DNA from: Saprospira grandis str. Lewin
GTDB taxonomy: Bacteria > Bacteroidota > Bacteroidia > Chitinophagales > Saprospiraceae
Assembly (NCBI RefSeq): GCF_000250635.1
Contig: NC_016940.1
Location: forward strand, 558,001 to 622,000
Reading direction: 5' to 3'
DNA length: 64,000 nt
A model generated the notes under the pieces. The model was not told the origin of the DNA. It saw only the letters and a list, made by a program, of their open reading frames with translations, and ran no database searches. Numbering within the stretch: the stretch's first letter is position 1; each line of letters starts with the position of its first letter. This document shows, in pieces, positions 912-61,917 of this stretch. Made by a program: the position numbers and the translations under genes.

Positions 912-1026
912 GGGGCCTCCCGCCTAGGGCGGGCGCTACGTTGCGCAGCTCGCTATTCGCTCGGCCCTTCGCCAGCAAAGCTGGCTCGGTCTGGCCCTGC
1001 GGGCCACTGCTGCACATCGCTAGGCC
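912..1026 (+). repeat. Multi-hairpin repeat, class I (copy 1)
   Basis: First copy of the dispersed GC-rich repeat. It starts GGGGCCT and ends CGCTAGGCC, so GGCCT and AGGCC can pair. Inside: hairpin 1 CCGCC/GGCGG, the constant block GCGCAGCTCGCTATTCGCTC, hairpin 2 GCCAGC-AAA-GCTGGC, the constant GGTCTGG, hairpin 3 TGGCCC-TGC-GGGCCA and the constant CACTGCTGCACATCGC. Two further hairpins follow: TGGCC-TTC-GGCCA (1031-1043) and CCTAGGGCC-AA-GGCCCTAGG (1046-1065). It lies just upstream of the crp-like gene in the 745-bp gap before map. Confidence 0.9.
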
Positions 1027-1218
1027 GATTTGGCCTTCGGCCACCCCTAGGGCCAAGGCCCTAGGCTATAGAGTCATCGCCATCCCCTCCTGCGAGGGGA
1101 TTTTCTATTTAGCCAGCCTCTAATTTTATTGACGAAGTAAGAGAATCACAGAAAAAGCCCTCTTTATTGCTGTGGGTTGAACCAAAAAAATTGGCTGAGG
1201 CCTTTAGGCTGCAGTAAT

Positions 1219-1232
1219 AGGATTTCAATCCT
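1219..1232. repeat. Short palindrome of the TTTCAACC family
   Basis: AGGATT-TC-AATCCT is a perfect 6-bp inverted repeat with a TC centre. It is a variant of the GGGTTTCAACCC palindromes seen at 12.6-12.9 kb and 36.9-37.2 kb. A related imperfect piece, CTGTGGGTTGAACC, lies about 50 bp upstream. No gene is visible between the GC-rich repeat ending at 1065 and the tandem array at 1291. Confidence 0.55.
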
Positions 1233-1290
1233 CAATTGTTAGGGAGTTGTTAAAAACAAAAATAATGTAACAAAATCAAAAAGGGCAAAA

Positions 1291-1520
1291 GTTATGTCTG
1301 AAACATAACTAGCTTACTAAAAAACATAACCAGCTAGGTCCGGAACATAACTGGCCTACTAAAAAACATAACCAGCTAGGTCTGAAACATAATTGGCCTA
1401 CTAAAAAACATAACCAGCTATGTCTGGAACATAACTGGCTTACTAAAAAACATAACTAGCTAGGTCGGGAACATAACTCGCTTACTAAAAAACATAACTA
1501 GCTAGGTCGGGAACATAAGT
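1291..1520. repeat. 42-bp tandem repeat (two 21-bp halves), about 5 copies
   Basis: The motif AACATAACtggcctacta recurs at 1302, 1344, 1386, 1428, 1470 and 1512, an exact 42-bp spacing. Each unit splits into two 21-bp halves that both begin AACATAAC: one continues (t/c)(a/g)GC(t/c)TACTAAAA and the other CAGCTAGGTC(t/c)GG. Copies differ at a few positions only. The array ends about 110 bp upstream of the map start codon and about 60 bp upstream of the candidate map promoter. There is no non-repeated spacer, so it is not a CRISPR array. Confidence 0.9.
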
Positions 1521-1576
1521 AGTTAAATGATTTAGATAGCTAGTGAAGGGAGCTGCGACATAATTTAAGCGGAGGG

Positions 1577-1606
1577 CTTGGTTCGCTAGAAAAATTTGTA
1601 CCTTTG
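1577..1606 (+). promoter_or_regulatory. Candidate Bacteroidota-type promoter for map
   Basis: TACCTTTG at 1599-1606 matches the Bacteroidota -7 consensus TAnnTTTG, and CTTG at 1577-1580 sits 18 bp upstream where a TTTG -33 element is expected. The map ATG follows 26 bp later. This is by inspection only. Confidence 0.45.
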
Positions 1607-1632
1607 GCCAGCAAATATATATATCCGCAGCT

Positions 1633-2436
1633 ATGATTATTTATAAGACGAAAGAACAAATAGAATTGGTCCGCAAAAGTGCCCTTTTGGTGTCTAAGAC
1701 CTTAGGGATGTTGGCCAGTGAGATTAAGCCTGGGGTAACGCCTAAGCATTTGGACCAATTGGCCGAGGCTTTTATCCGTGATAATGGTGGAAAACCTGGC
1801 TTTTTGGGCCTTTATGGTTGTCCGAGCACCTTATTGACCTCTGTAAATGAGCAGGTAGTGCATGGTTTGCCTACTGATCGTCCTTTAGAAAATGGGGACA
1901 TCATTGCGGTAGACTGTGGGGTATTGATGAATGGTTTTTATGGAGACCATGCCTATACTTTTCCCGTAGGCGATATTTCTGATGATCGTCAGCGGTTGTT
2001 GGATACTACTTTGGAGTGTTTATATAGAGGCATTGAGCAAACTTGCAAGGGCAAACGCATTGGCGATATTGGTCATGCGATTCAGTCTTTGGCAGAAGAA
2101 AGAGGTTATGGTGTTGTTCGTGAATTGGTGGGACATGGATTGGGCAAAAAGATGCATGAGGACCCGCAGGTTCCGAATTATGGCCGGCAGGGACATGGCA
2201 AAAAAATCAAAGAGGGTTTGGTGATTGCCATTGAGCCGATGATTAACATGGGGACGCATAAGGTGCATACCTTGGCAGATAACTGGACCATTTCTACAAT
2301 TGATGGGCAGCCTTCTGCTCATTTTGAGCATAATGTGGCTGTAGTTAATGGAAAGCCTGAGATTCTATCTACCTTTGATTATGTAGAAGAAGTATTGGGA
2401 GAAAGAGCGGCCCTAAAGCACAACAAAGTACTTTAG
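1633..2436 (+). CDS. map: Methionine aminopeptidase, type I
   Basis: Removes the N-terminal methionine from nascent proteins in the cytoplasm. The 267 residues match the usual length of bacterial type Ia enzymes. All five metal ligands of the pita-bread fold are visible: D94 (IIAVDCG), D105 (GFYGDHAYTF), H168 (LVGHGLGKKMHEDPQVPN), E201 (AIEPM) and E232 (FEHNVAV); the substrate-binding H77 lies in VVHGLP. It has no N-terminal zinc-finger extension. The gene stands alone, with its own candidate promoter and a strong terminator immediately downstream, so it is not part of the ribosomal-protein operon where map often sits. The first ATG gives the family's normal start (MIIYKTKEQIELVRKSALLV). Confidence 0.97.
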   Translation: MIIYKTKEQIELVRKSALLVSKTLGMLASEIKPGVTPKHLDQLAEAFIRDNGGKPGFLGLYGCPSTLLTSVNEQVVHGLPTDRPLENGDIIAVDCGVLMNGFYGDHAYTFPVGDISDDRQRLLDTTLECLYRGIEQTCKGKRIGDIGHAIQSLAEERGYGVVRELVGHGLGKKMHEDPQVPNYGRQGHGKKIKEGLVIAIEPMINMGTHKVHTLADNWTISTIDGQPSAHFEHNVAVVNGKPEILSTFDYVEEVLGERAALKHNKVL

Positions 2437-2468
2437 TAGCTGTTTAGAGAAGAACTCATTAGCCTAAG

Positions 2469-2500
2469 CGCTCCAACTTTGCTTAAAGTTGGAGCGTTTT
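2469..2500 (+). terminator. Rho-independent terminator of map
   Basis: Perfect 12-bp stem CGCTCCAACTTT / AAAGTTGGAGCG with a GCTT tetraloop, followed by TTTT. Confidence 0.9.
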
Positions 2501-2666
2501 ACATAAGTAGTTATTAAATAAGGGGTTGGGCTATGTTTGTCGGCTTTTGGTCAAAAAAAGCGGGAGATTGAGCTAAATAAAGTAGGCAGAGGCCCCAAAA
2601 GCCCAAGCCTTTTTCTATTTTTGTGGTCCTATTTCTTTGCGAATAGCAGGCGGCGAAGCCGCCGCA

Positions 2667-2796
2667 GGCTGAGGGATGGACAGCAGTGGCCGCAGGCCAG
2701 ACCTAGGGCTTTTGAAGCGAAGCGAAAAAGCCCGCAGGGCCGAGCGAAGAGCGAGCTGCGAAACAGCCCGACCCGACCAAAGGGAGGGGCAGCCCC
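2667..2796 (-). repeat. Multi-hairpin repeat, class II (copy 2)
   Basis: Reverse orientation: starts GGCTGAGGGATGG and ends GGGGCAGCCCC, so in repeat orientation GGCTG pairs with CAGCC. Hairpin 2 is GGGCTTTT / AAAAGCCC with the long loop TCGCTTCGCTTC. A flanking hairpin GCGGC-GAA-GCCGC lies just outside at 2650-2664. The copy ends 43 bp before the aminotransferase start and is open in that gene's frame. Confidence 0.9.
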
Positions 2797-2839
2797 AAAA
2801 AGAAAACAACAGCAACAACAACAATACAAATTTACGCTT

Positions 2840-4066
2840 ATGCCATCGATTTCACAGAGAGGTCAGTATACGCCGGCCTCGCCAATACGGAAATTGGTTC
2901 CCTTTGCGACAAGGGCTAAAAACCGTGGGGTAAAAGTTTATCATTTGAACATTGGGCAACCTGATATTGTAACGCCAGACATTGGTTGGAATGCGATTAA
3001 GGAGGCTGATATGAAGGTTTTGGAGTATAGTCATTCTGCGGGCATGGAGTCTTATCGGCTCAAGTTGGTAGAATTTTATACTCGTTATGGGATTCAGCTT
3101 ACGCATAACGACATCATTGTGACCAATGGAGGTTCTGAGGCCTTGATGTTTGGGATGATGGCTTGTTTGGATGCGGGAGATGAGATTATTGTGCCCGAGC
3201 CTTTTTATGCCAACTACAATGGATTTGCGCAGAGTTTGGGCATCAACATTCGGCCAATTACCTCTAGTATTGAAGATGGTTTTGCCTTGCCCCCGATTGA
3301 GTCTTTTGAGGCCTTGATCACGCCGCATACCAAAGCGATTTTGATTTGTAATCCGGCTAATCCCACGGGTTATTTGTATAGCGCTGCTGAATTGGAGGCC
3401 TTGGGGGAAATGGTCAAAAAATATGATCTCTATTTGTTTTCGGATGAAGTATATAGAGATTTCTGTTATGATGGCCGCAAGCATTTGTCGGTTTTGGCGA
3501 TTCCTGGATTGGAAGAGCATACGATCATGTTTGATTCTATTTCTAAGCGCTATAGTGCTTGTGGGGCTAGAATTGGCTTGATGGTGACTAGAAACAAAGC
3601 GGTATTGGAAACGGCCATGAAATTTGCGCAGGCTCGTTTGAGTCCGTCTACATTGGGGCAGATTATGGGCGAAGCCTTTATTGATGCCGATATGGATTAT
3701 TTGGATCAGGTGCGCATTGAGTACGACAAGCGTCGGCAATTGGTTTTGGCTCGGTTGAGAGCGATGGAGGGTGTAGTTGCGCCCACGCCCAACGGTGCCT
3801 TTTATTTATTGGCCCAGCTCCCTGTGGATGATACCGACAACTTTTGTCAGTGGTTGTTACAGTCTTTTCAACTAGATGGAGAAACGGTCATGTTGGCGCC
3901 TGGCTCTGGCTTTTATGCCACTTTGGGCTTTGGCAAACAAGAAGTTCGGATTGCCTACGTTTTGAATGAGGTGGATTTGAACAAGGCCCTAGATTGTCTA
4001 GAAGAAGCCTTAAAACTTTATCCTGGCCGGACGATTAACAATAATCAACTAACGAATCATCGTTAA
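2840..4066 (+). CDS. Class I/II pyridoxal-phosphate aminotransferase
   Basis: A 408-residue fold-type I aminotransferase, closest in look to the aspartate/aromatic aminotransferase group. Visible landmarks: the N-terminal IRKL segment, VTNGGSEALMFGM (cofactor phosphate), N171 in CNPANPTG, D202 in FSDEVYRDF, and the Schiff-base lysine K236 in SISKRYSACGARIG. The reading frame stays open 303 bp further upstream (to 2537), but that stretch is the GC-rich repeat and a Gln run, so ATG 2840, which begins MPSISQRGQYTPASPIRKL, is taken as the start. The gene stands alone and is followed by a terminator. Substrate cannot be named from sequence. Confidence 0.93.
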   Translation: MPSISQRGQYTPASPIRKLVPFATRAKNRGVKVYHLNIGQPDIVTPDIGWNAIKEADMKVLEYSHSAGMESYRLKLVEFYTRYGIQLTHNDIIVTNGGSEALMFGMMACLDAGDEIIVPEPFYANYNGFAQSLGINIRPITSSIEDGFALPPIESFEALITPHTKAILICNPANPTGYLYSAAELEALGEMVKKYDLYLFSDEVYRDFCYDGRKHLSVLAIPGLEEHTIMFDSISKRYSACGARIGLMVTRNKAVLETAMKFAQARLSPSTLGQIMGEAFIDADMDYLDQVRIEYDKRRQLVLARLRAMEGVVAPTPNGAFYLLAQLPVDDTDNFCQWLLQSFQLDGETVMLAPGSGFYATLGFGKQEVRIAYVLNEVDLNKALDCLEEALKLYPGRTINNNQLTNHR

Positions 4067-4078
4067 TATAGAACAACT

Positions 4079-4117
4079 ACGCCTACTGCAAAAAAAAATA
4101 TGAGTAGGCGTTTTTTT
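4079..4117 (+). terminator. Terminator of the aminotransferase gene
   Basis: Stem ACGCCTACT / AGTAGGCGT (9 bp) with a 15-nt A-rich loop, followed by a run of T. Confidence 0.85.
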
Positions 4118-4220
4118 ATTTCAAAATCAGAGGTTTCGGCCTCTAAATCTTTCATCTTCAGCTGCTTTTCTAGCCAACAGCAAATAGAAGTGCAGCTGTA
4201 CCTATCAAAATAACGACGCA

Positions 4221-5834
4221 ATGAAGCATGTAGGAATTAAAAACCCGAAGGCTGACTTGGCCAATTATGGCCTAAGCAATTTTGCGACTGCTTACTGGAA
4301 CCTTCCTGTTCCCGAACTAGTAGAGCACACGATCCAACTTGGAGAAGGCGTTCTGGCTGATACAGGGGCAATCAGAATTAAAACGGGCAAATTTACAGGT
4401 CGATCGCCCAAAGATCGCTTTGTAGTACAAGATGAGCTTACGGAGAAGACCGTAGATTGGAACAGCATCAATATGCCCTTTGAGCCGGCAAAATTTGATG
4501 CGCTTTACAACAAAATTGCCGCATATTTTGCAGACAAAGACCTCTACATCCGCGATGCTTATGCTTGTGCCGATGATAACTATCGTCTAAACTTGCGTCT
4601 GATTGCAGAAAAGCCTTGGTCGGCTATGTTTGCCAACAATATGTTTTTGCGCCCTAGCGAAGAAGAACTGCTAAACGCAAATCCAGAATGGACCATTCTC
4701 TGTGCGCCTGGCTTTATGGCTAATCCTGAAGTTGACGGTACTCGCCAAGAAAACTTTGCGATTATCAACTTTAGCAAAAAGGCAATTATCATTGGGGGAA
4801 CAGGCTATACTGGAGAAATTAAAAAAGGAATTTTCTCGGTGCTCAATTATGTTTTGCCTCAAGAACGCAACGTACTTTCTATGCACTGCTCGGCCAATGT
4901 GGGCCAAGATGGCGACACGGCTGTTTTCTTTGGCCTTTCGGGCACAGGTAAAACTACGCTTTCTGCTGATCCCAAGCGCAATCTTATCGGAGACGATGAG
5001 CACGGCTGGTCAGAAGAAGGCGTTTTCAATTTTGAAGGCGGCTGTTATGCCAAAACAATTGATTTGAGCGAGGAAAAAGAACCTCAGATCTGGAATGCGA
5101 TTAAGTTTGGGGCCATTCTCGAAAATATGGAGTTTTTGCCCAATAGTCGCACCCCCGATTTTGCCGATACCAGCATTACACAAAATACTCGGGTTTCTTA
5201 TCCTATTCATCATATTGATAATGCCCTAGAACCTTCTAAGGGCGGGATTCCCCAAAATATTTTCTTCCTCACCTGTGATGCTTTTGGCGTTTTGCCTCCC
5301 TTGTCTAAATTGACGCCCGGCCAAGCCATGTATCACTTTATTTCTGGCTATACGGCTAAGGTGGCCGGTACAGAAGCAGGTATCGACGAGCCCGTAAGTG
5401 CTTTCTCGGCTTGTTTTGGTGCTCCTTTCTTGCCCTTGCATCCTACTCAGTATGCCGAAATGTTGGGCGAGCGCATGCGCAAGCACAATGTGAACATCTG
5501 GTTGGTGAATACGGGCTGGTCTGCTGGTCCTTATGGTGTCGGTAGCCGCATTGCCCTAAAATATACTCGTGCGATGATCACGGCGGTATTGGAAGGTCAA
5601 TTGACGGATGTAGACTATCAGGAGATGCCTGTTTTTGGTTTGCATATGCCCACTAGCTGCCCCGGCGTTCCTGCCGATATCTTGAATCCTCGTAACACTT
5701 GGGCCGATAAAGCGGCTTATGATGTGAAAGCACAGGATTTGGCCAATAAGTTTGTTACTAACTTTGATAAATTTAAGGATCAAGCCAATGAGGAAATCCT
5801 AGCTGCTGCTCCAGAAGCAACGGTTAGCCTCTAA
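4221..5834 (+). CDS. pckA: Phosphoenolpyruvate carboxykinase (ATP)
   Basis: Converts oxaloacetate + ATP to phosphoenolpyruvate + CO2, the first committed step of gluconeogenesis. It has 537 residues, the standard length for the ATP-dependent family. The kinase P-loop GLSGTGKTTL is at 238-247 (K244), followed by the family-specific DPKRNLIGDDEHGWSEEG (metal-binding D257). The N-terminal GKFTGRSPKDRFVV (57-69) binds oxaloacetate and includes R61. MHCSAN (221-226) precedes the P-loop. The gene stands alone between two terminators. An ATG at 4221 gives the normal N-terminus. Confidence 0.98.
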   Translation: MKHVGIKNPKADLANYGLSNFATAYWNLPVPELVEHTIQLGEGVLADTGAIRIKTGKFTGRSPKDRFVVQDELTEKTVDWNSINMPFEPAKFDALYNKIAAYFADKDLYIRDAYACADDNYRLNLRLIAEKPWSAMFANNMFLRPSEEELLNANPEWTILCAPGFMANPEVDGTRQENFAIINFSKKAIIIGGTGYTGEIKKGIFSVLNYVLPQERNVLSMHCSANVGQDGDTAVFFGLSGTGKTTLSADPKRNLIGDDEHGWSEEGVFNFEGGCYAKTIDLSEEKEPQIWNAIKFGAILENMEFLPNSRTPDFADTSITQNTRVSYPIHHIDNALEPSKGGIPQNIFFLTCDAFGVLPPLSKLTPGQAMYHFISGYTAKVAGTEAGIDEPVSAFSACFGAPFLPLHPTQYAEMLGERMRKHNVNIWLVNTGWSAGPYGVGSRIALKYTRAMITAVLEGQLTDVDYQEMPVFGLHMPTSCPGVPADILNPRNTWADKAAYDVKAQDLANKFVTNFDKFKDQANEEILAAAPEATVSL

Positions 5835-5850
5835 GGTTTTTCTTATCGCA

Positions 5851-5886: not shown

Positions 5887-5899
5887 GGCCCTATGGCCG

Positions 5900-8221: not shown

Positions 8222-8348
8222 GGGGCCTCCGCCTCCCTTCGGTCGTCGGCGCTACGTTCCGCAGCTCGCTGTTCGCTCGGCCCTGCGCAAAAAAACAAGT
8301 TTTTTGCTGGGTCTGCGGCTGCGCCGCACTGCTGCACATCGCTAGGCC
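8222..8348 (+). repeat. Multi-hairpin repeat, class I (copy 3b)
   Basis: Starts GGGGCCT and ends CGCTAGGCC. Hairpin 2 is GCAAAAAA / TTTTTTGC with loop ACAAG, and hairpin 3 is TGCGGC-TGC-GCCGCA. A further hairpin TTGGCCC-TGC-GGGCCAA follows the end. It occupies most of the gap between mce and the TlpA-like gene. Confidence 0.9.
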
Positions 8349-8516: not shown

Positions 8517-8637
8517 GGCCTAGCGATGTGTAAGGGTGGCCGAAGGCCAGACCGAGCTTTTTGAGCAAAGCGAAAAAAGCGATGGGCCGAGCAGACCTGC
8601 GAGCCCTGAAACGTAGCGCAGCGCAGCTGAGGCCCCC
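8517..8637 (-). repeat. Multi-hairpin repeat, class I (copy 4)
   Basis: Reverse orientation, from GGCCTAGCGATGTG to GCTGAGGCCCCC. Hairpin 2 is GCTTTTT / AAAAAGC with the long TCGCTTTGCTC loop. The central block is of the GCAGGTCTGCTC type. It lies tail to tail with copy 3b, 170 bp apart. Confidence 0.9.
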
Positions 8638-12946: not shown

Positions 12947-13073
12947 GGCTGAGGGATGGATAGCAGTGGCCGTCAGGCCAGACCCAGTTTTTTGAGCGAA
13001 GCGAAAAAACGCAGGGCCGAGCGAACAGCGAGCTGCGACACAGCCCGACCCGACCGCAGGGAGGGGCAGCCCC
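12947..13073 (-). repeat. Multi-hairpin repeat, class II (copy 5)
   Basis: From GGCTGAGGGATGG to GGGGCAGCCCC. Hairpin 2 is GTTTTTT / AAAAAAC with loop CGCTTCGCTC. It ends 8 bp from the end of the convergently placed glycosyltransferase gene. Confidence 0.9.
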
Positions 13074-15817: not shown

Positions 15818-15956
15818 GGGGCTTCCCCTGCGGCCCTTTGGGCCTTGGGTCGGGCTGTGTCGGGGCTCGCTATTCGCTCGGCCCTGCAGTTTTTTTTCGC
15901 TGCGCTCAAAAAACTTGGGTCTGCGGCTGCGCCGCCCCCCTTTCCATCCCTAAGCC
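15818..15956 (+). repeat. Multi-hairpin repeat, class II variant GGCTT/AAGCC (copy 6)
   Basis: Starts GGGGCTTCCCC and ends CCATCCCTAAGCC. Both ends differ from the other class II copies (GGCTG/CAGCC) and still match each other. Hairpin 2 is AGTTTTTT / AAAAAACT with the long loop. It lies 25 bp upstream of the SH3-protein start, in the opposite direction. Confidence 0.9.
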
Positions 15957-18745: not shown

Positions 18746-18888
18746 GGCCCAGCGCTGCGCAGCCGTGGCCCGCAGGGCCAGACCCAGTTTTTTGAGCGTA
18801 GCGAAAAAAACGCAGGGCCGAGCAGACCTGCGAGCGGCGAAGCATAGCGGCGGCCGACCGAGGCGCAGCCGAGCCGGCCGCGGGCCCC
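18746..18888 (-). repeat. Multi-hairpin repeat, class III (copy 7)
   Basis: From GGCCCAGCGCTGCG to CCGCGGGCCCC, so GGCCC pairs with GGGCC in repeat orientation. Hairpin 2 is GTTTTTT / AAAAAAC with the loop CGCTACGCTC. It follows directly on the severed signal peptide ORF. Confidence 0.9.
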
Positions 18889-23112: not shown

Positions 23113-23232
23113 GGGGCCTCCGCTGCGGCTACGCCTTGCGGCGCTACGTTCCGCAGCTCGCTATTCGCTCGGCCCTTCAGCCCTTCGGGCTTTGGTCTGG
23201 CCCTTCGGGCCACTGCTGCACATCGCTAGGCC
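23113..23232 (+). repeat. Multi-hairpin repeat, class I (copy 8b)
   Basis: Starts GGGGCCT and ends CGCTAGGCC. Hairpin 2 is AGCCC-TTC-GGGCT and hairpin 3 TGGCCC-TTC-GGGCCA. The pspA/ybjN - clpC gap holds only this double copy and the clpC terminator. Confidence 0.9.
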
Positions 23233-26064: not shown

Positions 26065-26186
26065 GGCCTAGCGATGCGAAGCGGGTGGCCCGCAGGGGCA
26101 GACCGAGCCGCTGAAAGCGGCGAAGGGCCGAGCGAACAGCGAGCCCCGAAGCGTAGCGCCGAGGAGCGAAGCGAGGCGGAGGCCCC
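26065..26186 (-). repeat. Multi-hairpin repeat, class I (copy 9)
   Basis: From GGCCTAGCGATGCG to GCGGAGGCCCC. Hairpin 2 is GCCGCT-TTC-AGCGGC. An outside hairpin GCGGC-AAA-GCCGC (26048-26060) flanks it, as for copy 2. It fills the gap between clpC and the STAS gene; no gene is seen there. Confidence 0.9.
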
Positions 26187-29998: not shown

Positions 29999-30114
29999 GG
30001 GGCCTCCTGCCTACGGCAGGCGCTACGTTTCGGGGCTCGCAGGTCTGCTCGGCCCTGCGCCGCCTTTGGCGGCTGGGTCTGCGGCTTCGCCGCCCCCCTC
30101 CACATCGCTAGGCC
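29999..30114 (+). repeat. Multi-hairpin repeat, class I (copy 10)
   Basis: Starts GGGGCCT and ends CGCTAGGCC. Hairpin 1 is CCTGCC-TAC-GGCAGG, hairpin 2 GCCGCC-TTT-GGCGGC and hairpin 3 GCGGC-TTC-GCCGC. The central block is of the GCAGGTCTGCTC type. It fills the gap between glnN and the HsdR-N-like gene. Confidence 0.9.
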
Positions 30115-31584: not shown

Positions 31585-31703
31585 GGCCCAGCGCTGCGCA
31601 GCCGTGGCCCGCAGGGCCAGACCAAAGTCCGCAGGGCTGCAGGGCCGAGCAGACCTGCGAGCGGCGCAGCATAGCGGCGGCCGGCTAGCCGGCCGCGGGC
31701 CCC
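31585..31703 (-). repeat. Multi-hairpin repeat, class III (copy 11)
   Basis: From GGCCCAGCGCTGCG to CCGCGGGCCCC. Hairpin 2 is AGCCC-TGC-GGACT, the only copy of 21 with a mismatch in this stem. Hairpin 1 is perfect: GGCCGGC/GCCGGCC across TAG-type bases. It lies 12 bp from the end of the isomerase-like gene. Confidence 0.9.
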
Positions 31704-34388: not shown

Positions 34389-34509
34389 GGGGCCTCCGCT
34401 GCGGCCTGCGGCCTTGCGGCGCTACGTTGCGCAGCTCGCTATTCGCTCGGCCCTGCGGCCTGACGGCCTTGGTCTGCGGCTGCGCCGCACTGCTGCACAT
34501 CGCTAGGCC
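34389..34509 (+). repeat. Multi-hairpin repeat, class I (copy 12)
   Basis: Starts GGGGCCT and ends CGCTAGGCC. Hairpin 2 is GGCC-TGAC-GGCC and hairpin 3 TGCGGC-TGC-GCCGCA; ATGGCC-TTC-GGCCAT follows. The gap between the SCO-like gene and the 740-aa gene otherwise shows nothing recognisable. Confidence 0.9.
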
Positions 34510-36980: not shown

Positions 36981-37175
36981 GGCTGAGGGGCTGTAGCAGG
37001 GCCGCCGCAGGCGGCAGACCAAGGCGCTTTGCGCCGAAGGGCCGAGCAGACCTGCGAGCTGCGCAATGGCCCGACCCGCCCGATAACTTATGAGGGTTTC
37101 AACCCTCATTTTGTATAGCTTCGCAAAGCGATACCGCTTTGCGCTGGGTTTCAACCCGGCGGAAGGGGCAGCCCC
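36981..37175 (-). repeat. Multi-hairpin repeat, class II, split by a second repeat (copy 13)
   Basis: From GGCTGAGGGG to GGGGCAGCCCC. Hairpin 2 is GGCGC-AAA-GCGCC. Between CCCGACCCGCCCG and GGAAGGGGCAGCCCC, where other copies have a short loop, it contains about 78 bp of the TTTCAACC module. The insertion falls in the tip of hairpin 1. The outer ends still match (GGCTG/CAGCC). Confidence 0.88.
37091..37159. repeat. 70-nt palindrome module nested in repeat copy 13
   Basis: TGAGGGTTTCAACCCTCA (37091-37108), TCGC-AAA-GCGA followed by TACC (37121-37135) and CTGGGTTTCAACCCGG (37144-37159). It is parallel to the module at 36888, 200 bp away, with the middle hairpin changed from ATTGC/GCAAT to TCGC/GCGA, both sides altered together. 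Confidence 0.88.
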
Positions 37176-42615: not shown

Positions 42616-42734
42616 GGGGCTGCCCCTCGCTACGCTCGGGTCGGGCTGTTTCGCAGCTCGCTATTCGCTCGGCCCTGCAGCGGCAAAGCCGCTTTGGTCT
42701 GGCGCTTCGCGCCACTGCTGTCCATCCCTCAGCC
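42616..42734 (+). repeat. Multi-hairpin repeat, class II (copy 14)
   Basis: Starts GGGGCTGCCCC and ends CCATCCCTCAGCC. Hairpin 2 is AGCGGC-AAA-GCCGCT and hairpin 3 TGGCGC-TTC-GCGCCA. AATTGGCG / CGCCAATT (42735-42759) follows. It lies in the gap between the divergent SPOR-protein and CoA-transferase genes. Confidence 0.9.
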
Positions 42735-45031: not shown

Positions 45032-45151
45032 GGCCTAGCGATGTGCAGCAGTGGCCGTTAGGCCAGACCCAGCGGGCGCAGCCCGCGCAGGGCCGAGCGA
45101 ACAGCGAGCTGCGAAACGTAGCGCCGACGACCGAAGGGAGGCGGAGGCCCC
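45032..45151 (-). repeat. Multi-hairpin repeat, class I (copy 15b)
   Basis: From GGCCTAGCGATGTG to GCGGAGGCCCC. Hairpin 2 is GCGGGC-TGC-GCCCGC. It is followed 9 bp later by the partial unit 45161-45245. Read on the minus strand this gives partial then full, the same order as at 8.1 and 23.0 kb. Confidence 0.9.
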
Positions 45152-46417: not shown

Positions 46418-46532
46418 AATTGCAATTTTATTAGGGTTATCAATTAGAGATAACCTTAAAATAGCTGCTTTATTTATAAAATACAAGCGGATGGCTTTAT
46501 TTTGTTAGGCTTTTCTCTTTGAAAATGAAGCT

Positions 46533-46756
46533 GAGGACTTGCTCTACCCATCCCGAGGACTTACCCTAATCATCCCGAGGACTTACCCTAATCATCTCGA
46601 GGACTTACCCTAATCATCTTGAGGACTTACCCTAATCATCTTGAGGACTTACCCTAATCATCTTGAGGACTTACCCTAATCATCTTGAGGACTTACCCTA
46701 ATCATCTCGAGGGGTTGCCATACCCCTCTTGAGGACTTGCCTTAGCCATCGAGGAG
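46533..46756. repeat. 22-bp tandem repeat, about 10 copies
   Basis: GAGGACTTACCCTAATCATC(T/C)(C/T) starts at 46533, 46555, 46577, 46599, 46621, 46643, 46665, 46687, 46709 and 46731, an exact 22-bp step. The middle copies are almost identical and the outer ones diverged (GAGGGGTTGCCATACCCCTC). The array lies between the divergent TMEM43 and esterase genes, ending about 90 bp before the esterase ATG. It has no spacers. Confidence 0.92.
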
Positions 46757-46845
46757 AGTTTTAGCTATTCCCTCTAGCTATTTTCCCTTATTAAAAATCT
46801 CTTGCTTTTCTGTACTTTAGTAGTAGATCAACAAAACAATCGATT

Positions 46846-48443: not shown

Positions 48444-48572
48444 GGGGCCTCAGCTGCGGCCTGCGGCCTTGCTGCGCTACGCTTTGGGGCTCGCAGGTCT
48501 GCTCGGCCCTGCGGGCTCCACTTCGTTCCGCCCTTGGTCTGGCCTTCGGCCACCCCGCCGCATCGCTAGGCC
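48444..48572 (+). repeat. Multi-hairpin repeat, class I (copy 16)
   Basis: Starts GGGGCCTCAGC and ends CGCTAGGCC. Hairpin 1 is GCTGCGGCC/GGCC-type. Hairpin 2 is GGGC / GCCC around a 13-nt loop, the longest loop of this arm. Central block GCAGGTCTGCTC. It follows the esterase stop by 11 bp, where a terminator would be expected. Confidence 0.88.
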
Positions 48573-49758: not shown

Positions 49759-49886
49759 GGCTGAGGGATGGAAAAGGGGGCGGCGCAGCCGCAGACCGAG
49801 CTTTTGAGCGCAGCGAAAAAGCGAAGGGCCGAGCAGACCTGCGAGCCCTGACACAGCCCGACCCGCCCGCAGGGCGGGGCAGCCCC
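49759..49886 (-). repeat. Multi-hairpin repeat, class II (copy 17)
   Basis: From GGCTGAGGGATGG to GGGGCAGCCCC. Hairpin 1 is perfect (CCCGCCC-TGC-GGGCGGG). Hairpin 2 is GCTTTT / AAAAGC with the long loop TCGCTGCGCTC. It ends 26 bp before the nifU-like ATG. Confidence 0.9.
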
Positions 49887-55903: not shown

Positions 55904-56030
55904 GGGGCCCGCGGCCAGCTTTGCTGGCCGCCGCTATGCTGCGGGGCTCGCAGGTCTGCTCGGCCCTGCAGGCAGGCTACGCCTGCCTTTGGTCTGCGGC
56001 TTCGCCGCACCCGCTCCGCAGCGCTGGGCC
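55904..56030 (+). repeat. Multi-hairpin repeat, class III (copy 18)
   Basis: Starts GGGGCCCGCGG and ends CAGCGCTGGGCC, so GGCCC pairs with GGGCC. Hairpin 1 is GGCCAGC-TTT-GCTGGCC, hairpin 2 GGCAGGC-TAC-GCCTGCC, hairpin 3 TGCGGC-TTC-GCCGCA. It is the only forward copy of class III. Confidence 0.9.
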
Positions 56031-56307: not shown

Positions 56308-56427
56308 GGCTGAGGGATGGACAGCAGTGGCGCGAAGCGCCAGACCAAGGCGCTTTAGCGCCGCAGGGCCGAGCGAATAGCGAGCTGCGAAACAGCCCGA
56401 CCCGAGCCAAAGGCGAGGGGCAGCCCC
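56308..56427 (-). repeat. Multi-hairpin repeat, class II (copy 19)
   Basis: From GGCTGAGGGATGG to GGGGCAGCCCC. Hairpin 2 is GGCGC-TAAA-GCGCC and hairpin 3 TGGCGC-TTC-GCGCCA. It ends 37 bp before the TPR gene. Confidence 0.9.
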
Positions 56428-56464
56428 AAAAAAACAGCAGCATTTACCAAATCACTATACCAAA

Positions 56465-57145: not shown

Positions 57146-57147
57146 TT

Positions 57148-57708: not shown

Positions 57709-57710
57709 AC

Positions 57711-58133
57711 TTAACGCTCCTCCAAGCTTTCTAGCCATTTTAAGGCCTTTTCTCTGCTTTGAAAAAGCTTAGTGGGATACTCTTGGCGGTTAATCGCCAA
57801 AAGAACGCTCCCCATCATCTTGCTAACTAAATTGCTGGCCAACAAAGCAATGCCCGAAGTATAAGGGTCATTGAGTTTGCTTTCTGCTGTTTTCCAAAAA
57901 GCATTGACCTCCTTATCAACATTTGTCAAGTTATCTAAGCGGACCAGCAAGCGAATAGAGCGCCCACTCTCTTTATGATATTTAGCTTGAACCTCTTCTG
58001 TTTTTTTAGCTTCGGCTAAAGTTAGTGGGCTCTTTTTTTCTAGGCCCACAGCAGGTCGAACCTCTAAAATGCCTGCGGGTAACAGCCAAAAATCTAATTG
58101 GCCACAACTATCTATTTTCTTTTCCATTTCCAT
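57711..58133 (-). CDS. STAS/SEC14-like small paralogue 5
   Basis: 140 residues, last of five tandem paralogues. N-terminus KKIDSCGQLDFWLLPAGILEV, then LTLAEAKKTEEVQAKYHKES, IRLLVRLDNLTNVDKEVNAF, and the C-terminal signature YPTKLFQSREKALKWLESLEE. It is the closest relative of paralogue 4 (most residues identical), so this duplication is recent. The STAS-like reading rests on the strand/helix order; no domain database was consulted. An alternative start is two codons in. Confidence 0.75.
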   Translation of the reverse strand: MEMEKKIDSCGQLDFWLLPAGILEVRPAVGLEKKSPLTLAEAKKTEEVQAKYHKESGRSIRLLVRLDNLTNVDKEVNAFWKTAESKLNDPYTSGIALLASNLVSKMMGSVLLAINRQEYPTKLFQSREKALKWLESLEER

Positions 58134-58155
58134 CTAAATTAGAATTGGGGGTAAT

Positions 58156-58572
58156 TTAACATTCCTCCAAGCTTTCTAGCCATTTTAAGGCCTTTTCTCT
58201 GCTTTGAAAAAGCTTAGTCGGATACTCCCTTGGATAAATTGCCAAAAACACTGTCCCCAACATTTTAGCCACTAAATTATTGGCAATCAAAGCTACCCCC
58301 AAAGTATAAGGGTCATTCTCTTTACCTTCAGGCATTTTCCAAAAGGCATTTGCTTCTTTAGTAAGATTGCTCATATTATCTATACGAACCATCAAACGGA
58401 TAGACCGTCCACTTTCTTTATGATATTTTGCTTGAACCTTTTCTATTTTTTTAGCTTCGGCTAAAGTTAGTGGGCTCTTTTTTTCTAAGCCCACAGCAGG
58501 TCGAATATCTAAAATTCCTGCAGGCAAGAGCCAAAAATCTAATTGGCCGAAACTGTCTATTTTCTTTTCCAT
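58156..58572 (-). CDS. STAS/SEC14-like small paralogue 4
   Basis: 138 residues from ATG 58572 (MEKKIDSFGQLDFWLLPAGI). Same plan as its neighbours: first strands, ESGRSIRLMVRIDNMSNLTK, the helix GVALIANNLVAKMLGTVFLA and YPTKLFQSREKALKWLESLE. The ATG is 1 nt after the stop of paralogue 3 (TAAGATG), a tight coupling. Confidence 0.75.
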   Translation of the reverse strand: MEKKIDSFGQLDFWLLPAGILDIRPAVGLEKKSPLTLAEAKKIEKVQAKYHKESGRSIRLMVRIDNMSNLTKEANAFWKMPEGKENDPYTLGVALIANNLVAKMLGTVFLAIYPREYPTKLFQSREKALKWLESLEEC

Positions 58573-58573
58573 C

Positions 58574-58987
58574 TTAGTCCTCCAAACTGAGTAGCCAAGC
58601 AATGGCTTGCTCCTCTGTTTTAAATAGTTTTACTGGATACTTTTGTTGATAAAGCCCCAACAATATATTCCCAGTCATCCGACTAAATAAACTACTTGCT
58701 AAAAGCGCATAGCCCAAAACACATTCCGTTGCTTTTTGACTTTCAGCTGTTTTTCCATATTGTCGAGCTTCTGTACTCAATTTAGACATACTAGCCAAAT
58801 CAGCAAGCATGCGTACTTTTTTGCTGGTCATTTCATAGACCTTTTGCTGAACAGCCAAAGAATGTTTTATCTCTTCTAAGCTTAACTCTTGAGTTTTAGC
58901 TAAGTTTTGAGTTGACTGTACTTTTAAAATCCCATTATCCAACAACCAATATTCTAATTGGCCGAAACTGTCTATTTTCTTTGCCAT
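58574..58987 (-). CDS. STAS/SEC14-like small paralogue 3
   Basis: 137 residues from ATG 58987 (MAKKIDSFGQLEYWLLDNGI). Middle part VYEMTSKKVRMLADLASMSK, then GYALLASSLFSRMTGNILLG and the end YPVKLFKTEEQAIAWLLSLE. It is more A+T-rich than the pair downstream. 51 bp separate it from paralogue 2. Confidence 0.75.
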   Translation of the reverse strand: MAKKIDSFGQLEYWLLDNGILKVQSTQNLAKTQELSLEEIKHSLAVQQKVYEMTSKKVRMLADLASMSKLSTEARQYGKTAESQKATECVLGYALLASSLFSRMTGNILLGLYQQKYPVKLFKTEEQAIAWLLSLED

Positions 58988-59038
58988 AGTTCTAACTAAA
59001 ATCTGGATCAATTTTTCGTATTTAACTCTCCAAGCACG

Positions 59039-59455
59039 CTAAGGCCTTCTAAAAGATAGCAACCACTTCATTGCTTCTTCCCTATCACTAAAAATTCTTA
59101 CAGGGTAATCACTTTTCACAATCCCCACAAGCATATTCCCCAACATTCGGCTAAAGGCATTGCTCACTAATAAGGCATTTGCTAATGTAAAATCATTTAA
59201 TTTCCGCCCCTCTTCTGTCTTTAAAAAGTCCTTAGCAGACTTACTCAATTTAGACATACTCGACATTTCTGCAAGCAGAATAATTTTTTGTTGCTCTTCT
59301 TCAAGCAGACGTTGCTGAACTTCTACCCCATATGCAATTTCTTCCAAAGAAATCTCTTTGCTTTTATTCTTATCTCCAACTGTTCGTATTTCTAAAATAC
59401 CATTATCCAACAGCCAATATTCTAATTGGCCAAATTCGTCTATTTTCTTTGCCAT
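59039..59455 (-). CDS. STAS/SEC14-like small paralogue 2
   Basis: 138 residues from ATG 59455 (MAKKIDEFGQLEYWLLDNGI). RLLEEEQQKIILLAEMSSMS in the middle, ANALLVSNAFSRMLGNMLVG, and the end YPVRIFSDREEAMKWLLSFR. Its start lies 4 bp after the stop of paralogue 1. Confidence 0.75.
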   Translation of the reverse strand: MAKKIDEFGQLEYWLLDNGILEIRTVGDKNKSKEISLEEIAYGVEVQQRLLEEEQQKIILLAEMSSMSKLSKSAKDFLKTEEGRKLNDFTLANALLVSNAFSRMLGNMLVGIVKSDYPVRIFSDREEAMKWLLSFRRP

Positions 59456-59459
59456 AATA

Positions 59460-59876
59460 TTAGCTATAGTCTGGATCAATTTTTTCCCTTTGGCTCTCCA
59501 ACCAATCTAAGGCCTTTTCTCGATTAGAAAAGGCTTTTATGGGGTAAGGAGGCTTATTCATACCTAACATAAAGTTGGCCACAATTCTAGAAATACCCAG
59601 GCCCACTAGTATCGCTGCCGAGCGGCCCATGGGTTTGGGGTCATGAGCAAAATAATCTCGGCCATCTTTGCTAAAGCCCTTAATTTTGCGAATATCAAAA
59701 AGAGCATAAATAGGCTGTTCTTGCGCCTTGGCCATTGCCCGAATTGTCGTTTTAAATTCGGCAGCTTCTACCGCAGAAATCTTAGTGGGGGCGACAACAA
59801 TACTAAACAAACGACGGTCAGCTAAGTAGCTAACCTGCCCAGCAGTCAAGTCAACCTGTTCGTCTTTTGGGTTCAT
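59460..59876 (-). CDS. STAS/SEC14-like small paralogue 1 (most divergent)
   Basis: 138 residues from ATG 59876 (MNPKDEQVDLTAGQVSYLAD). The pattern is the same but the sequence is the least similar: RRLFSIVVAPTKISAVEAAE, then PIYALFDIRKIKGFSKDGRD, where the central strand ending in DIRK is where the others have LVRLDN/LAEMSS. GISRIVANFMLGMNKPPYPI and NREKALDWLESQREKIDPDY close it. It heads the five-gene array. Strand-helix order and the (Y)P-x-K-x-F-x-(N/S)RE-x-A-x-x-WL ending resemble Bacteroidota STAS/SEC14-like (DUF7793-type) proteins. Confidence 0.75.
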   Translation of the reverse strand: MNPKDEQVDLTAGQVSYLADRRLFSIVVAPTKISAVEAAEFKTTIRAMAKAQEQPIYALFDIRKIKGFSKDGRDYFAHDPKPMGRSAAILVGLGISRIVANFMLGMNKPPYPIKAFSNREKALDWLESQREKIDPDYS

Positions 59877-59881
59877 ATTCT

Positions 59882-59913
59882 TTTGTTTATATACAACAAA
59901 ACTAACTATTTTG
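59882..59913 (+). promoter_or_regulatory. Candidate promoter of the membrane protein gene
   Basis: TTTG at 59882-59885 and TATTTTG at 59907-59913 are 21 bp apart, close to the Bacteroidota TTTG/TAnnTTTG layout. The ATG at 59934 is 20 bp further on. The 57-bp space is shared with the divergent paralogue array. Confidence 0.35.
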
Positions 59914-59933
59914 TCGCAAAAAATGACCGCAGT

Positions 59934-60722
59934 ATGCAACTTATACCAAAGCCTGCTCCAATTTTTTCCAACTACTTGCTTTCTATAGGAATTTTGGCCC
60001 TACTCTTGGGCCGTAGCTGGCAGGCCGCTTTTGCCGATTTACCTTGGCGAGCCTTTTTCTGGAATCAAACCATTTGGCAAGCTTTCCTTAGTGAGGAGGA
60101 CTATCTCCTTTTTTTTCAAGAAGATTATATCAACTTTTTTAGTTGGGGAATGGCTATTTTTTGGAGCATTTGCGCCCTGCTCCTCCCCTTCTTTAAACAA
60201 CGATTTTTAGCCTATACCGCCAGCCTGAGCTTGCTTTTTTTGGCCCTACTTTTTGCCCTGAGCAAAAACCTACAAGCTCCCCAATTTTGGGAGTATAGTC
60301 TGCAAGTTTGCTGGCCACTGCTCTTTGTGCTTACTGCTCGCCAAAAGTGGTTGTTATGGGCCACGGGCATCTGCTTTACGGCCCATGCCTGCTATGCCCT
60401 AGGGCTCTACCCTCCCCCTGTCGATTGGCTAAATTACTGCATGAGTTTTCTGCATCTCTCTGCCGCAGCAGCCAAGGATTTTCTATTTTTCATGGGCCTT
60501 TTAGATGTTTTGGCCGTAGCCTTACTCTTTTGGCCCAAAAGCCGAAATCTAGGCCTAATTTATTGCTTTTCTTGGGGACTAATCACCGCCCTTGCTCGCC
60601 CTCTAGCCAATAGCTACGCCTTTTTGGACCTAGGCGATTTCACCCTCTACTTTTCCGAGTTTTTGGTCCGTTTTCCCCACTTTTTAGGCCCACTTTATTT
60701 ACTCCTTTTTGCTAGACGCTAG
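59934..60722 (+). CDS. Polytopic membrane protein, unknown function
   Basis: 262 residues from ATG 59934 (MQLIPKPAPIFSNYLLSIGI). About seven hydrophobic segments (starting near residues 14, 65, 90, 115, 135, 175 and 205). Trp and Phe are frequent: LPWRAFFWNQTIWQAFLSEE, YINFFSWGMAIFWSICALLL. No family is recognised. Pro-rich loop LGLYPPPVDWLNYCMSFLHL. It ends at a class II repeat whose first base is 14 bp away. Confidence 0.75.
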   Translation: MQLIPKPAPIFSNYLLSIGILALLLGRSWQAAFADLPWRAFFWNQTIWQAFLSEEDYLLFFQEDYINFFSWGMAIFWSICALLLPFFKQRFLAYTASLSLLFLALLFALSKNLQAPQFWEYSLQVCWPLLFVLTARQKWLLWATGICFTAHACYALGLYPPPVDWLNYCMSFLHLSAAAAKDFLFFMGLLDVLAVALLFWPKSRNLGLIYCFSWGLITALARPLANSYAFLDLGDFTLYFSEFLVRFPHFLGPLYLLLFARR

Positions 60723-60735
60723 TTTTTTTTGTTTT

Positions 60736-60896
60736 GGGGCTGCCCCGGCCGTTGGCCGGGTCGGGCTGGGTATTCCCGTTGGTCATCGAACTGGCGCCCC
60801 TATAGGGGCTGGTTGTCGCAGCTCGCAAGTCTGCTCGGCCCTTCAGCCCTGCGGGCTTCGGTCTGGCCTTCGGCCACTGCTATCCATCCCTCAGCC
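60736..60896 (+). repeat. Multi-hairpin repeat, class II with the extra module (copy 20)
   Basis: Starts GGGGCTGCCCC and ends CCATCCCTCAGCC. Hairpin 1 is perfect, CCCGGCC-GTT-GGCCGGG. Unlike other class II copies it also contains the module GTATTCCCGTTGGTCATCG, AACTGG, the hairpin GCCCC-TATA-GGGGC and GGTTGTCG seen in the partial class I units. Hairpin 2 is AGCCC-TGC-GGGCT. Confidence 0.9.
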
Positions 60897-60916
60897 AAAA
60901 TGAGTTGAAACAGAAA

Positions 60917-60946
60917 GAGCGCAGCGGCCTGCAGGCCGCTGCGCTC
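60917..60946. terminator. Perfect 30-nt palindrome, possible terminator of the acyltransferase gene
   Basis: GAGCGCAGCGGCCTG / CAGGCCGCTGCGCTC, 15-bp arms with no loop. It lies just after the leftward acyltransferase gene. On that strand it is followed by TTTCTGTTTCAACTC, only weakly T-rich. Confidence 0.6.
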
Positions 60947-60948
60947 CA

Positions 60949-61758
60949 TCAAAAGGGCAGTATTCTTCGCCAAAATTCTTTTTTGGGGTCTATTTTTCGA
61001 TACTCTTGCAGCTCGGCAATTTCTTTTTCTAGGGCCAATTTCACTTGATCGCGCAGGGCCAAAGGCCCTGCCTCTTCGCCCAGCTCGGCAAAGGGACGGC
61101 TATCTATAGGGCGACCAAACTTAAAGTAAAAACGCTGGGGCTTGGGCAAAAAACTAGGCCCCAATCCCTTAACCAAAGGCGGCAATAAGTCTTTGCGCAA
61201 GCGAAAACGCTCCATAATTTGGCCCAAAGGCGTTTGCAAAAGCTCCTCTCGGTCCAAAACAATATCATAGCATTCTTCTGCCCCCACCGTGGCCAAAGGC
61301 ACAATGGGACAGCCAGCAGCTATCGCCAAACGGGCAAACCCCAAATGGTTGCGCCACAATAACTGATAGGCCTCGCCCTTTTGCTTGAAGGCCTCTCTGG
61401 CGCCACCAGGATAAACCAAAAGATACTGCTTTTGCCGCATTAGGGCTAGGGCATTTTCTGGCGTTCCCTCTACCTCGCCCAAACGAGCCAAAAAATCTCT
61501 GAGCAATGGGAGCTTAAAATGAGCATGATCCACCAAAATACGCAGAAAAATATCATGCTCCTGATAAAGATGTAAGGCCAATAAAGGCACATCCAATCCC
61601 CCCATCAAGCTGTGGTTACCCACAAATAATACTGGCCCATCTTTAGGAATATTGTAGGTAGATAAATAGACGGGCTCCGTCAACCAGTTCCAAGGCTGTA
61701 ACAAACGCTCCATCCAGCGGATTTGTGCCTCATTAGGTGGGGGTAAATCGTAATTCAT
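60949..61758 (-). CDS. PlsC-like lysophospholipid acyltransferase
   Basis: 269 residues. It probably acylates a lysophospholipid or similar acceptor at the inner membrane. Motif I reads GPVLFVGNHSLMGGLDVPLL: His49 and Asp56 with six residues between, not the usual four of PlsC. Later blocks: LGEVEGTPENALALMRQKQY, the VYPGGAREAFKQ block (motif III, usually FPEGxR), and the GCPIVPLATVGAEECYD block (motif IV). The spacing and YPGGARE fit the acyltransferases related to plant phytyl ester synthase and bacterial lipid acyltransferases. Probably a soluble or peripheral protein: no membrane helix. Confidence 0.82.
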   Translation of the reverse strand: MNYDLPPPNEAQIRWMERLLQPWNWLTEPVYLSTYNIPKDGPVLFVGNHSLMGGLDVPLLALHLYQEHDIFLRILVDHAHFKLPLLRDFLARLGEVEGTPENALALMRQKQYLLVYPGGAREAFKQKGEAYQLLWRNHLGFARLAIAAGCPIVPLATVGAEECYDIVLDREELLQTPLGQIMERFRLRKDLLPPLVKGLGPSFLPKPQRFYFKFGRPIDSRPFAELGEEAGPLALRDQVKLALEKEIAELQEYRKIDPKKEFWRRILPF

Positions 61759-61794
61759 ACGCTTTTTTGGATCTAAAGGGCGGCGAAGCCGCCC

Positions 61795-61917
61795 GGCCTA
61801 GCGATGTGGAGGGGGGGCCGAAGGCCAGACCGAGGCGGCTTTGCCGCCAAAGGGCCGAGCGAACAGCGAGCCCCGAAACGTAGCGCCGCAAGGCCGTTAG
61901 GCCGCAGCGGAGGCCCC
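61795..61917 (-). repeat. Multi-hairpin repeat, class I (copy 21)
   Basis: From GGCCTAGCGATGTG to GCGGAGGCCCC. Hairpin 2 is GGCGGC-AAA-GCCGCC. Outer hairpin GGGCGGC-GAA-GCCGCCC (61778-61794) touches its end. The last bases of this copy (CCTA) reach the stop codon of the hydrolase gene. Confidence 0.9.

What the first reader, a model, noticed from the sequence alone, without database searches (positions are those of the whole stretch)
912..61917. Dispersed multi-hairpin repeat with class-specific, co-varying ends
Seen in sequence: 21 loci (24 units) of a repeat about 115-160 nt long, always between genes and in both orientations. The first bases GGGGC... and the last bases form a short pair that differs by class and always stays matched: GGCCT/AGGCC (copies 1, 3, 4, 8, 9, 10, 12, 15, 16, 21), GGCTG/CAGCC (2, 5, 13, 14, 17, 19, 20), GGCTT/AAGCC (6) and GGCCC/GGGCC (7, 11, 18). 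The blocks next to the ends also go with the class: GCTACGTT with CATCGCTA; GGGTCGGGCTG with CCATCCCT; CGCTATGCTGCG with CGCAGCGCTG. Matched changes at both ends across more than 100 nt argue that the ends meet in a folded RNA or in a DNA structure recognised by an enzyme. I know of no described family with this layout. Inference: a mobile structured element, like REP/BIME elements in effect, or an abundant noncoding RNA.
Basis: partly seen in the sequence, partly recalled or inferred. Interest (0 to 1): 0.92.

Follow-up and report, generated by a model that had tools for sequence, protein, structure and literature searches.

The report
Alternating branched-hairpin repeats in Saprospira
A sea bacterium carries well over a thousand copies of a short, many-armed foldable DNA/RNA element that makes up nearly 4% of its genome, keeps its place while its arms are swapped between copies, and in the regions studied mostly flips direction from one copy to the next, a pattern that no known repeat family I could test explains.

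Summary
The window holds 21 units (not 24); the genome has 1,335 core matches, about 3.7% of its sequence, and two same-genus genomes 1,351 and 1,281. Covariation supports P1, P1b, P2 and P3; with the almost invariant P4 base and P5 they imply a three-way plus a tight four-way junction. Mismatches are strand-specific (G.T 26 vs A.C 4; G.A 36 vs C.T 4), so one single strand is constrained, RNA more likely than ssDNA. At mappable orthologous sites the unit is present in the same orientation in 118 of 126 comparisons, yet its hairpins are often swapped. Orientation alternates along the chromosome: 105 of 122 neighbours in 384 kb of this genome. In-place inversions were 0 of 214, against crossing-over as the cause. 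No Rfam match on a unit, no target-site duplication and no linked Y1 gene were found, nor any description in the papers searched. My reading: a REP/MITE-like element that spread, became fixed, and is now kept by selection and gene conversion as paired polar elements. Function is inferred; no RNA data were available.

The parts
914..1026 (-). unit 1, P1 GGCCT/AGGCC, P2 GCAG/CTGC (strand = structured strand)
2667..2794 (+). unit 2, P1 GGCTG/CAGCC, P2 GCAG/CTGC
8224..8348 (-). unit 3, P1 GGCCT/AGGCC; forms a close (-,+) pair with unit 4
8517..8634 (+). unit 4, P1 GGCCT/AGGCC, P2 AGGG/CCCT
12947..13071 (+). unit 5, P1 GGCTG/CAGCC
15820..15956 (-). unit 6, P1 GGCTT/AAGCC, P2 GGGG/CCCC
18746..18886 (+). 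unit 7, P1 GGCCC/GGGCC, P2 GCCG/CGGC
   Evidence: (18746-18875)
23115..23232 (-). unit 8, P1 GGCCT/AGGCC
26065..26184 (+). unit 9, P1 GGCCT/AGGCC
30001..30114 (-). unit 10, P1 GGCCT/AGGCC, P2 GGGG/CCCC
31585..31701 (+). unit 11, P1 GGCCC/GGGCC, P2 GCCG/CGGC
34391..34509 (-). unit 12, P1 GGCCT/AGGCC
   Evidence: (34403-34509)
36981..37173 (+). unit 13, P1 GGCTG/CAGCC; P6 region enlarged by a GAGGGTTTCAACCCTC hairpin repeat
   Evidence: (36981-37104)
42618..42734 (-). unit 14, P1 GGCTG/CAGCC; best model score in the sample (110.6 bits; it is in the model's seed)
45032..45149 (+). unit 15, P1 GGCCT/AGGCC
48446..48572 (-). unit 16, P1 GGCCT/AGGCC, P2 GGGG/CCCC
   Evidence: (48458-48572)
49759..49884 (+). 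unit 17, P1 GGCTG/CAGCC, P2 AGGG/CCCT
55906..56030 (-). unit 18, P1 GGCCC/GGGCC; close (-,+) pair with unit 19
56308..56425 (+). unit 19, P1 GGCTG/CAGCC
60738..60896 (-). unit 20, P1 GGCTG/CAGCC, with a second small repeat nested in P1b (near 60791)
   Evidence: (60764-60896)
61795..61915 (+). unit 21, P1 GGCCT/AGGCC, P2 GGGG/CCCC
   Evidence: (61795-61903)

Best explanation
A dispersed, structured intergenic element of the Saprospiraceae. Shown by sequence and covariation: the unit (mean 122 nt) has ends that pair (P1), a helix P1b with class-specific mismatches, a covarying helix P2 and a hairpin P3. Implied by adjacency: P2, P3, P4 (on a GACC/GGGC base) and P5 follow each other with no unpaired base, hence a tight four-way junction; P1, P1b and hairpin P6 make a three-way junction. 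The strand whose mismatches are G.A and G.T is the constrained one. Copies keep their sites while hairpins are exchanged between copies, and neighbours alternate in orientation. Inferred: it spread long ago as a non-autonomous mobile element; its single-stranded form, RNA more likely than ssDNA, is recognised by a trans-acting protein; gene conversion swaps modules, and selection keeps helices matched and orientation alternating, so that the elements now act as polar marks whose 3' ends face each other across blocks of genes. The protein and the benefit to the cell are unknown.
For: 1,335, 1,351, 1,281 and 658 core matches in G000, G001, G002 and G116, backwards control 0 in each. Covariation on 35 sequences: 92 cells changed on both sides against 28.5 in shuffles, 0 of 500 as high, slid structures at most 12; RNAalifold unaided predicts P1b and P2, 6 of 8 pairs with double changes; 124 units: 466 against 161 (alignment fitted to the model). 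P2 perfectly paired in 220 of 252 parsed units against 72 expected. Mismatches in P2+P4: G.T 26 vs A.C 4 (p 6e-5), G.A 36 vs C.T 4 (p 2e-7); copies are related, so p is optimistic. At the base of P4, G goes with A (30) and non-G with C (114); exceptions 2 and 6 of 152 classed among 158 (p 2e-23): a G-C pair is avoided. P3 loops G..A in 132 of 158. Same site, same orientation in 118 of 126 comparisons, 0 opposite. P4 strongly swapped in 62 same-site comparisons, an identical P4 elsewhere in the sample in 45. Alternation: 175 of 216 between occupied regions against 113 (sd 7, maximum 139) in 5,000 shuffles; 105 of 122 in G000 with diverged units counted. 119 of 124 model hits score 55 bits or more, few look decayed.
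Against: No expression data. Both strands fold almost equally well (-56.3 against -54.6 kcal/mol; structured strand lower in 83 of 121), and single-sequence folds show P2 in only 41, P5 in 50 and the P4 base in 9 of 121. RNAalifold does not call P1 or P5. P4 base and P5 hardly vary, and most units were collected by the P5 core. One covariation measure, further pair types, is unremarkable (76 and 36 of 500 shuffles as high). C.C (16) exceeds G.G (9) among mismatches, against the strand asymmetry, though mostly in P2 (14 of 16), where register slips of the parser fall. P2 swaps are not always clean: of 53 P2 differences at 112 parsed site pairs, 30 have 4/4 Watson-Crick pairs in both genomes; the rest are parser slips or one-sided changes. 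No gene-direction bias (45, 31, 27, 26). Inward and outward spans hold equally conserved genes. Two same-genus genomes gave no copy, so it seems dispensable to the genus. Site comparisons share loci and are not independent.
Confidence: 0.45

Rival explanations
1. A REPIN/MITE-like ssDNA element moved by a HUH or other transposase; structure is needed only for mobility and the cell gains nothing.
For: High copy number, patchy spread (34 of 199 family genomes), both orientations, presence on plasmids, head-to-head pairs: 36 of 36 gene-free spans are (-,+).
Against: No excess of flank direct repeats in 234 units. Sites shared between genomes whose tested genes are 92-96% and 78-82% identical; of 8 'empty' comparisons 7 show remnants of a unit, 1 none. 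One Y1 gene each in G000 and G001, three in G002; 3 units in 16.7 kb around these five, no more than background. Pair members do not share class.
Confidence: 0.25
2. A non-autonomous retroposon (SINE-like): the structured RNA was reverse transcribed and inserted, leaving an A-rich 3' flank.
For: Strand-specific mismatches; AAAA within 8 nt after the 3' end in 66% and 87% of units in the two gene contexts against 8% background (168 of 223 when the end is placed without regard to what follows).
Against: In the Phaeodactylibacter copies the A-run is weaker, 7 of 24; no duplications; a reverse transcriptase link was not tested; alternation unexplained.
Confidence: 0.1
3. No function: neutral repeats kept perfect by quasi-palindrome correction and gene conversion.
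For: Hairpin arms stay perfect although their sequences turn over fast; donors exist; neighbouring units share an identical P4 more often than shuffled ones.
Against: Specific mismatches are kept and a G-C pair is avoided at the P4 base; strand asymmetry; ordered orientation. Correction would remove mismatches.
Confidence: 0.15
4. Alternation is only a filter: direct neighbours delete the genes between them by recombination, inverted neighbours survive.
For: Spans between same-orientation neighbours hold less conserved genes (0.38-0.62 found in the other block against 0.73-0.93), and exchange between copies is common.
Against: In-place inversions between inverted neighbours, expected if crossing-over were common, are 0 of 214 mapped spans. 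Counting diverged units raises alternation, from 90 of 110 to 105 of 122 in G000, whereas decay of direct neighbours should leave remnants that lower it.
Confidence: 0.15
5. A cis-acting mRNA element (leader, terminator or 3' stabiliser).
For: Some 3' ends lie 11-46 nt before a predicted start codon; if the promoter is further up, those units are in the leader.
Against: All four gene contexts occur, divergent regions included; the U-run is on the wrong side for an intrinsic terminator.
Confidence: 0.1

Closest known systems
REP / BIME / REPIN (PMC2817692, PMC3733652, PMC3116915 seen as search listings with abstract starts; PMC3733652 also as passages; the rest recalled)
   Same: High-copy intergenic palindromic repeats; alternating orientation inside BIMEs; head-to-head pairs
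   Different: REPs are 20-40 bp palindromes, most with a GTAG or CGTC tag, and tied to RAYT genes; here about 122 nt, branched, no linked Y1 gene, alternation over kilobases with genes between
ERIC, BOX, RUP and other stem-loop families (PMC2267715, passages read)
   Same: 60-200 bp structured intergenic repeats; BOX is modular (recalled)
   Different: Copy numbers up to about 800 in the table seen; the structures described there are single or adjacent stem-loops or unspecified complex ones; no alternation mentioned in the passages read
MITEs (recalled)
   Same: Short, non-coding, ends complementary (5 bp), intergenic
   Different: No target-site duplication found, no parent transposon found
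SINEs of eukaryotes (recalled)
   Same: Structured, very high copy, A-rich 3' flank
   Different: No reverse transcriptase link tested; sites fixed

Membership tests
REP/REPIN | 20-40 bp palindrome with GTAG or CGTC tag | tested here: not met
   Parsed units mean 122 nt, 109-143, branched
REP/REPIN | RAYT (Y1) gene flanked by the repeat | tested here: not met
   3 units in five Y1 loci of 3.3 kb, no more than background density; the G000 gene is flanked by a different repeat
REP/REPIN | Head-to-head pairs | tested here: met
   36 of 36 gene-free spans are (-,+) in five sampled blocks
MITE | Terminal inverted repeats | tested here: met
   5-bp complementary ends, 205 of 235 parsed; shorter than usual for MITEs (recalled)
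MITE | Target-site duplication | tested here: not met
   No excess of direct flank repeats of 3-8 nt in 234 parsed units; old duplications could have decayed
Known RNA family (Rfam 15) | Covariance-model match | tested here: not met
   0 at gathering score in the whole window; permissive searches of two window units and of five loci with relatives gave 1 and 15 sub-threshold hits, none overlapping a unit
Structured RNA | Transcribed from the structured strand | not testable with these tools
   no RNA data
SINE-like retroposon | A-rich 3' flank | tested here: inconclusive
   168 of 223 in Saprospira, 7 of 24 in G116

The most novel reading that the evidence does not exclude
A chromosome-wide, orientation-ordered array of about 1,300 RNA- or ssDNA-structured elements that divides the chromosome into blocks bounded by inward-facing polar elements, a bacterial counterpart in layout to convergent boundary elements, kept functional by in-place exchange of hairpin modules.
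Probability: 0.3. Interest if true: 0.96.

Novelty: new variant of a known kind. Interest (0 to 1): 0.85.

Why it matters
If the ordering holds genome-wide, a bacterium keeps over a thousand structured elements in alternating orientation through speciation, which neither mobile-element theory nor the nucleoid biology I know predicts. The family also gives many natural helix swaps at fixed sites, a rare direct view of selection on nucleic-acid structure, and offers a strong-signal system for the old question of what REP-like repeats are for.

Tried and rejected
Rfam: nothing on a unit. The Y1/RAYT link: rejected. Transposon-like cassettes bounded by units: pair members do not share class (outward 17 same against 24 expected, inward 28 against 23), genes in inward and outward spans equally conserved, spans shorter or longer in the other genome occur in all three kinds of span; a few lose the genes between units, such as window 34.4-37.0 kb in G002. 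Clean empty sites: 7 of the 8 'empty' comparisons hold remnants of a unit, one holds none. Terminator or 3'-end role: no context bias. Recombination filter: no in-place inversion. A first P1 test with a regex shifted by one base was replaced. The A-run count used a parser that favours ends followed by AA; one search repeats it without that.

Sampling limits: could map 126 of 215 unit-genome comparisons tried; one search scored at most 18 candidates per genome and at most 9, so copy counts and absences there are lower bounds. Literature: full-text searches with Saprospira grandis + repeat + genome, Saprospiraceae + intergenic + repeat + palindromic (0 papers), intergenic repeat + Bacteroidetes + secondary structure, Saprospira grandis + complete genome sequence, four-way junction + repetitive element, alternating orientation + bacterial chromosome (10 of 703 listed), REPIN/RAYT + Bacteroidetes (8 of 228 listed), Phaeodactylibacter + repeat: I saw listings and abstract starts, none describes it. 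In the S. grandis WHT genome note the word repeat does not occur (passages); PMC3733652 does not mention Saprospira (passages); the Lewin genome paper is not held.
Full report
Origin. The window is G000:C1:558001-622000 of a 4,400,185-base genome whose chromosome has 4,345,237 bases. I recall that size for Saprospira grandis str. Lewin; no call names it. G001 has a contig of 4,422,561 bases, the length of S. grandis DSM 2844 NZ_JH719942.1. G116 has a contig of 262,585 bases, the length of Phaeodactylibacter luteus NZ_VOOR01000001.1. G002 is an unnamed third member of the genus.

The observation. The strict core pattern occurs 1,194 times in the genome. The looser one occurs 671 times forward and 664 reverse in G000, 675 and 676 in G001, 642 and 639 in G002, 332 and 326 in G116; backwards controls are 0 in these four. 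At a mean of 122 nt over parsed units, 1,335 units fill about 3.7% of the genome.

Which strand folds. P2, P3, P4 and P5 follow without an unpaired base, which implies a four-way junction; P1, P1b and P6 would make a three-way junction. A P6 stem of at least 4 bp next to P1' was found in 171 of 232 parsed units; its covariation was not tested. P5 holds tandem G.A/A.G pairs under a five-base loop such as GAACA or GAATA, or a six-base one such as AGACCT. The other strand would have C.U there.

Covariation. On 35 sequences (Saprospira, Phaeodactylibacter and contigs of Saprospiraceae and Flavobacteriales MAGs), 17 pairs of P1, P1b (five of seven positions), P2 and P5 have 96.6% paired cells and 92 cells changed on both sides, against 28.5 in shuffles; slid structures give 2-12; the count of further pair types is not unusual (76 of 500 shuffles reach it). 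RNAalifold without my structure predicts P1b and P2 only. On 124 units of the G000 sample, 27 pairs give 466 double-changed cells against 161 (alignment fitted to the model); P1b is 77% paired because three of its seven positions are often mismatched (G.A, A.G or C.U by class). P2 occurs as GCAG/CTGC, GGGG/CCCC, AGGG/CCCT, GCCG/CGGC, CTGG/CCAG, GTGG/CCAC, GCGG/CCGC and others. In relatives I read CGTAG/CTACG, AGTAG/CTACT, AGAG/CTCT and ATGG/CCAT by eye. Non-canonical rules are also kept: at the base of P4, G with A or non-G with C in 144 of 152. Mismatches in P2 and P4 lean to those tolerated on one strand only, with C.C over G.G as a small counter-sign. Against the model, single-sequence energy folds find P2 in 41 of 121 and the P4 base in 9 of 121, and both strands have similar energies.

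Where the units sit. Of 131 units in three blocks, 129 lie outside large ORFs, in all four gene contexts (45, 31, 27, 26). The 3' end is close to a gene (median 23 nt to an opposing stop, 78 to a start, crude gene calls) and followed by an A-run (AAAA within 8 nt in 66% and 87%, background 8%; 168 of 223 without parser bias). In G116 it is 7 of 24. About half (112 of 234) have a further hairpin just upstream of P1.

Fixed sites, moving parts. Between G000, G001 and G002 the same site carries a unit in the same orientation in 33 of 35, 35 of 36, 19 of 21 and 31 of 34 comparisons, none opposite; the sets share loci, and these are the 126 of 215 attempts whose two flanks could be mapped. Contents turn over: P4 differs by more than 3 edits at 16 of 49 parsed G000-G001 pairs and 53 of 63 pairs with G002, while tested genes are 92-96% and 78-82% identical. 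Sometimes only P4 is swapped, sometimes the whole inner junction with P2 changed on both strands and the outer part kept, sometimes P2 and P3 change around an unchanged P4. Identical P4 sequences exist elsewhere in the sample for 45 of 62 strong swaps. This is what gene conversion between copies under selection for pairing would leave. Of 53 P2 differences, 39 change both strands and 30 are fully paired in both genomes; one-sided changes also occur.

Alternating orientation. Along the five sampled blocks 213 of 254 neighbours alternate (39 of 54, 51 of 56, 45 of 54, 39 of 45, 39 of 45). With gene-free pairs merged, 175 of 216 transitions alternate, against a mean of 113 and a maximum of 139 in 5,000 shuffles of the regional states; between single-unit regions 15 of 145 neighbours have the same orientation. 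Counting diverged units found by the model, G000 alone rises from 90 of 110 to 105 of 122. G116 gives 12 of 14. Three of the five blocks are orthologous, so they are not independent; G0a and G0b are separate parts of one chromosome. Gene-free spans are (-,+) in 36 of 36; inward spans all hold at least one predicted gene (106 spans, median 3.9 kb); outward spans hold 0-2 genes in 98 of 107 (median 1.3 kb). No span is inverted in place between genomes: 214 collinear, 7 not found. Hence neither frequent crossing-over nor recent paired insertion explains the order.

Spread. The model finds the family in 34 of 199 Saprospiraceae genomes and 25 of 112 genera, with at most 18 candidates scored per genome. 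In the phylum sample 3 of 395 genomes match at E 1e-4 with 9 candidates scored each: G000, one further family member and one borderline genome outside the family. Two same-genus genomes, 63% and 90% complete, gave none. One unit used as query matches two Saprospira plasmids, with no listed gene under the best match, and no phage.

Judgement. A repeat family of the REP/ERIC/MITE kind in effect, but failing tested defining features of REP and MITE, with an implied branched fold and an ordering that the named searches did not show elsewhere. The protein partner, RNA nature and role are open.

Noticed in passing
window near 60791 (-) and 23066 (-); 6-12 core matches per sampled block: A second small hairpin repeat (core GTTCGAYGACC, with ACAACAAG and GAGTAAC flanks) that nests inside units, in P1b or in the P5 loop, sometimes with loss of unit sequence.
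   Followed up: partly
window about 37080-37160; G0b 9804 and 15672: Units whose 3' part contains a GAGGGTTTCAACCCTC hairpin repeat; similar GGGTT..AACCC and CCTAGGG..CCCTAGG hairpins appear in other intergenic DNA.
   Followed up: no
L129 (G000:C1:3523726-3527064): The one Y1 transposase gene found in the genome is flanked by several copies of an unrelated repeat with a GCCTAGGGGCTTGTCCCTAGGC palindrome, a possible true REP-RAYT pair.
   Followed up: no
window 1248-1560 and 46488-46772: Tandem arrays of 42-bp and 22-bp units.
   Followed up: no
window 57711-59939: A run of neighbouring minus-strand ORFs with repeated DNA up to 300 nt, 73-89% alike.
   Followed up: no
G1b 88523 and 89376 (G001:C2 near 3.32 Mb): A direct duplication of a unit with about 0.85 kb of flanking DNA, seen in G001 but not in G000 or G002.
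   Followed up: partly
G003, G004 against G000-G002: Two genomes of the same genus (63% and 90% complete) gave no copy, so the family grew or was lost within the genus.
   Followed up: partly
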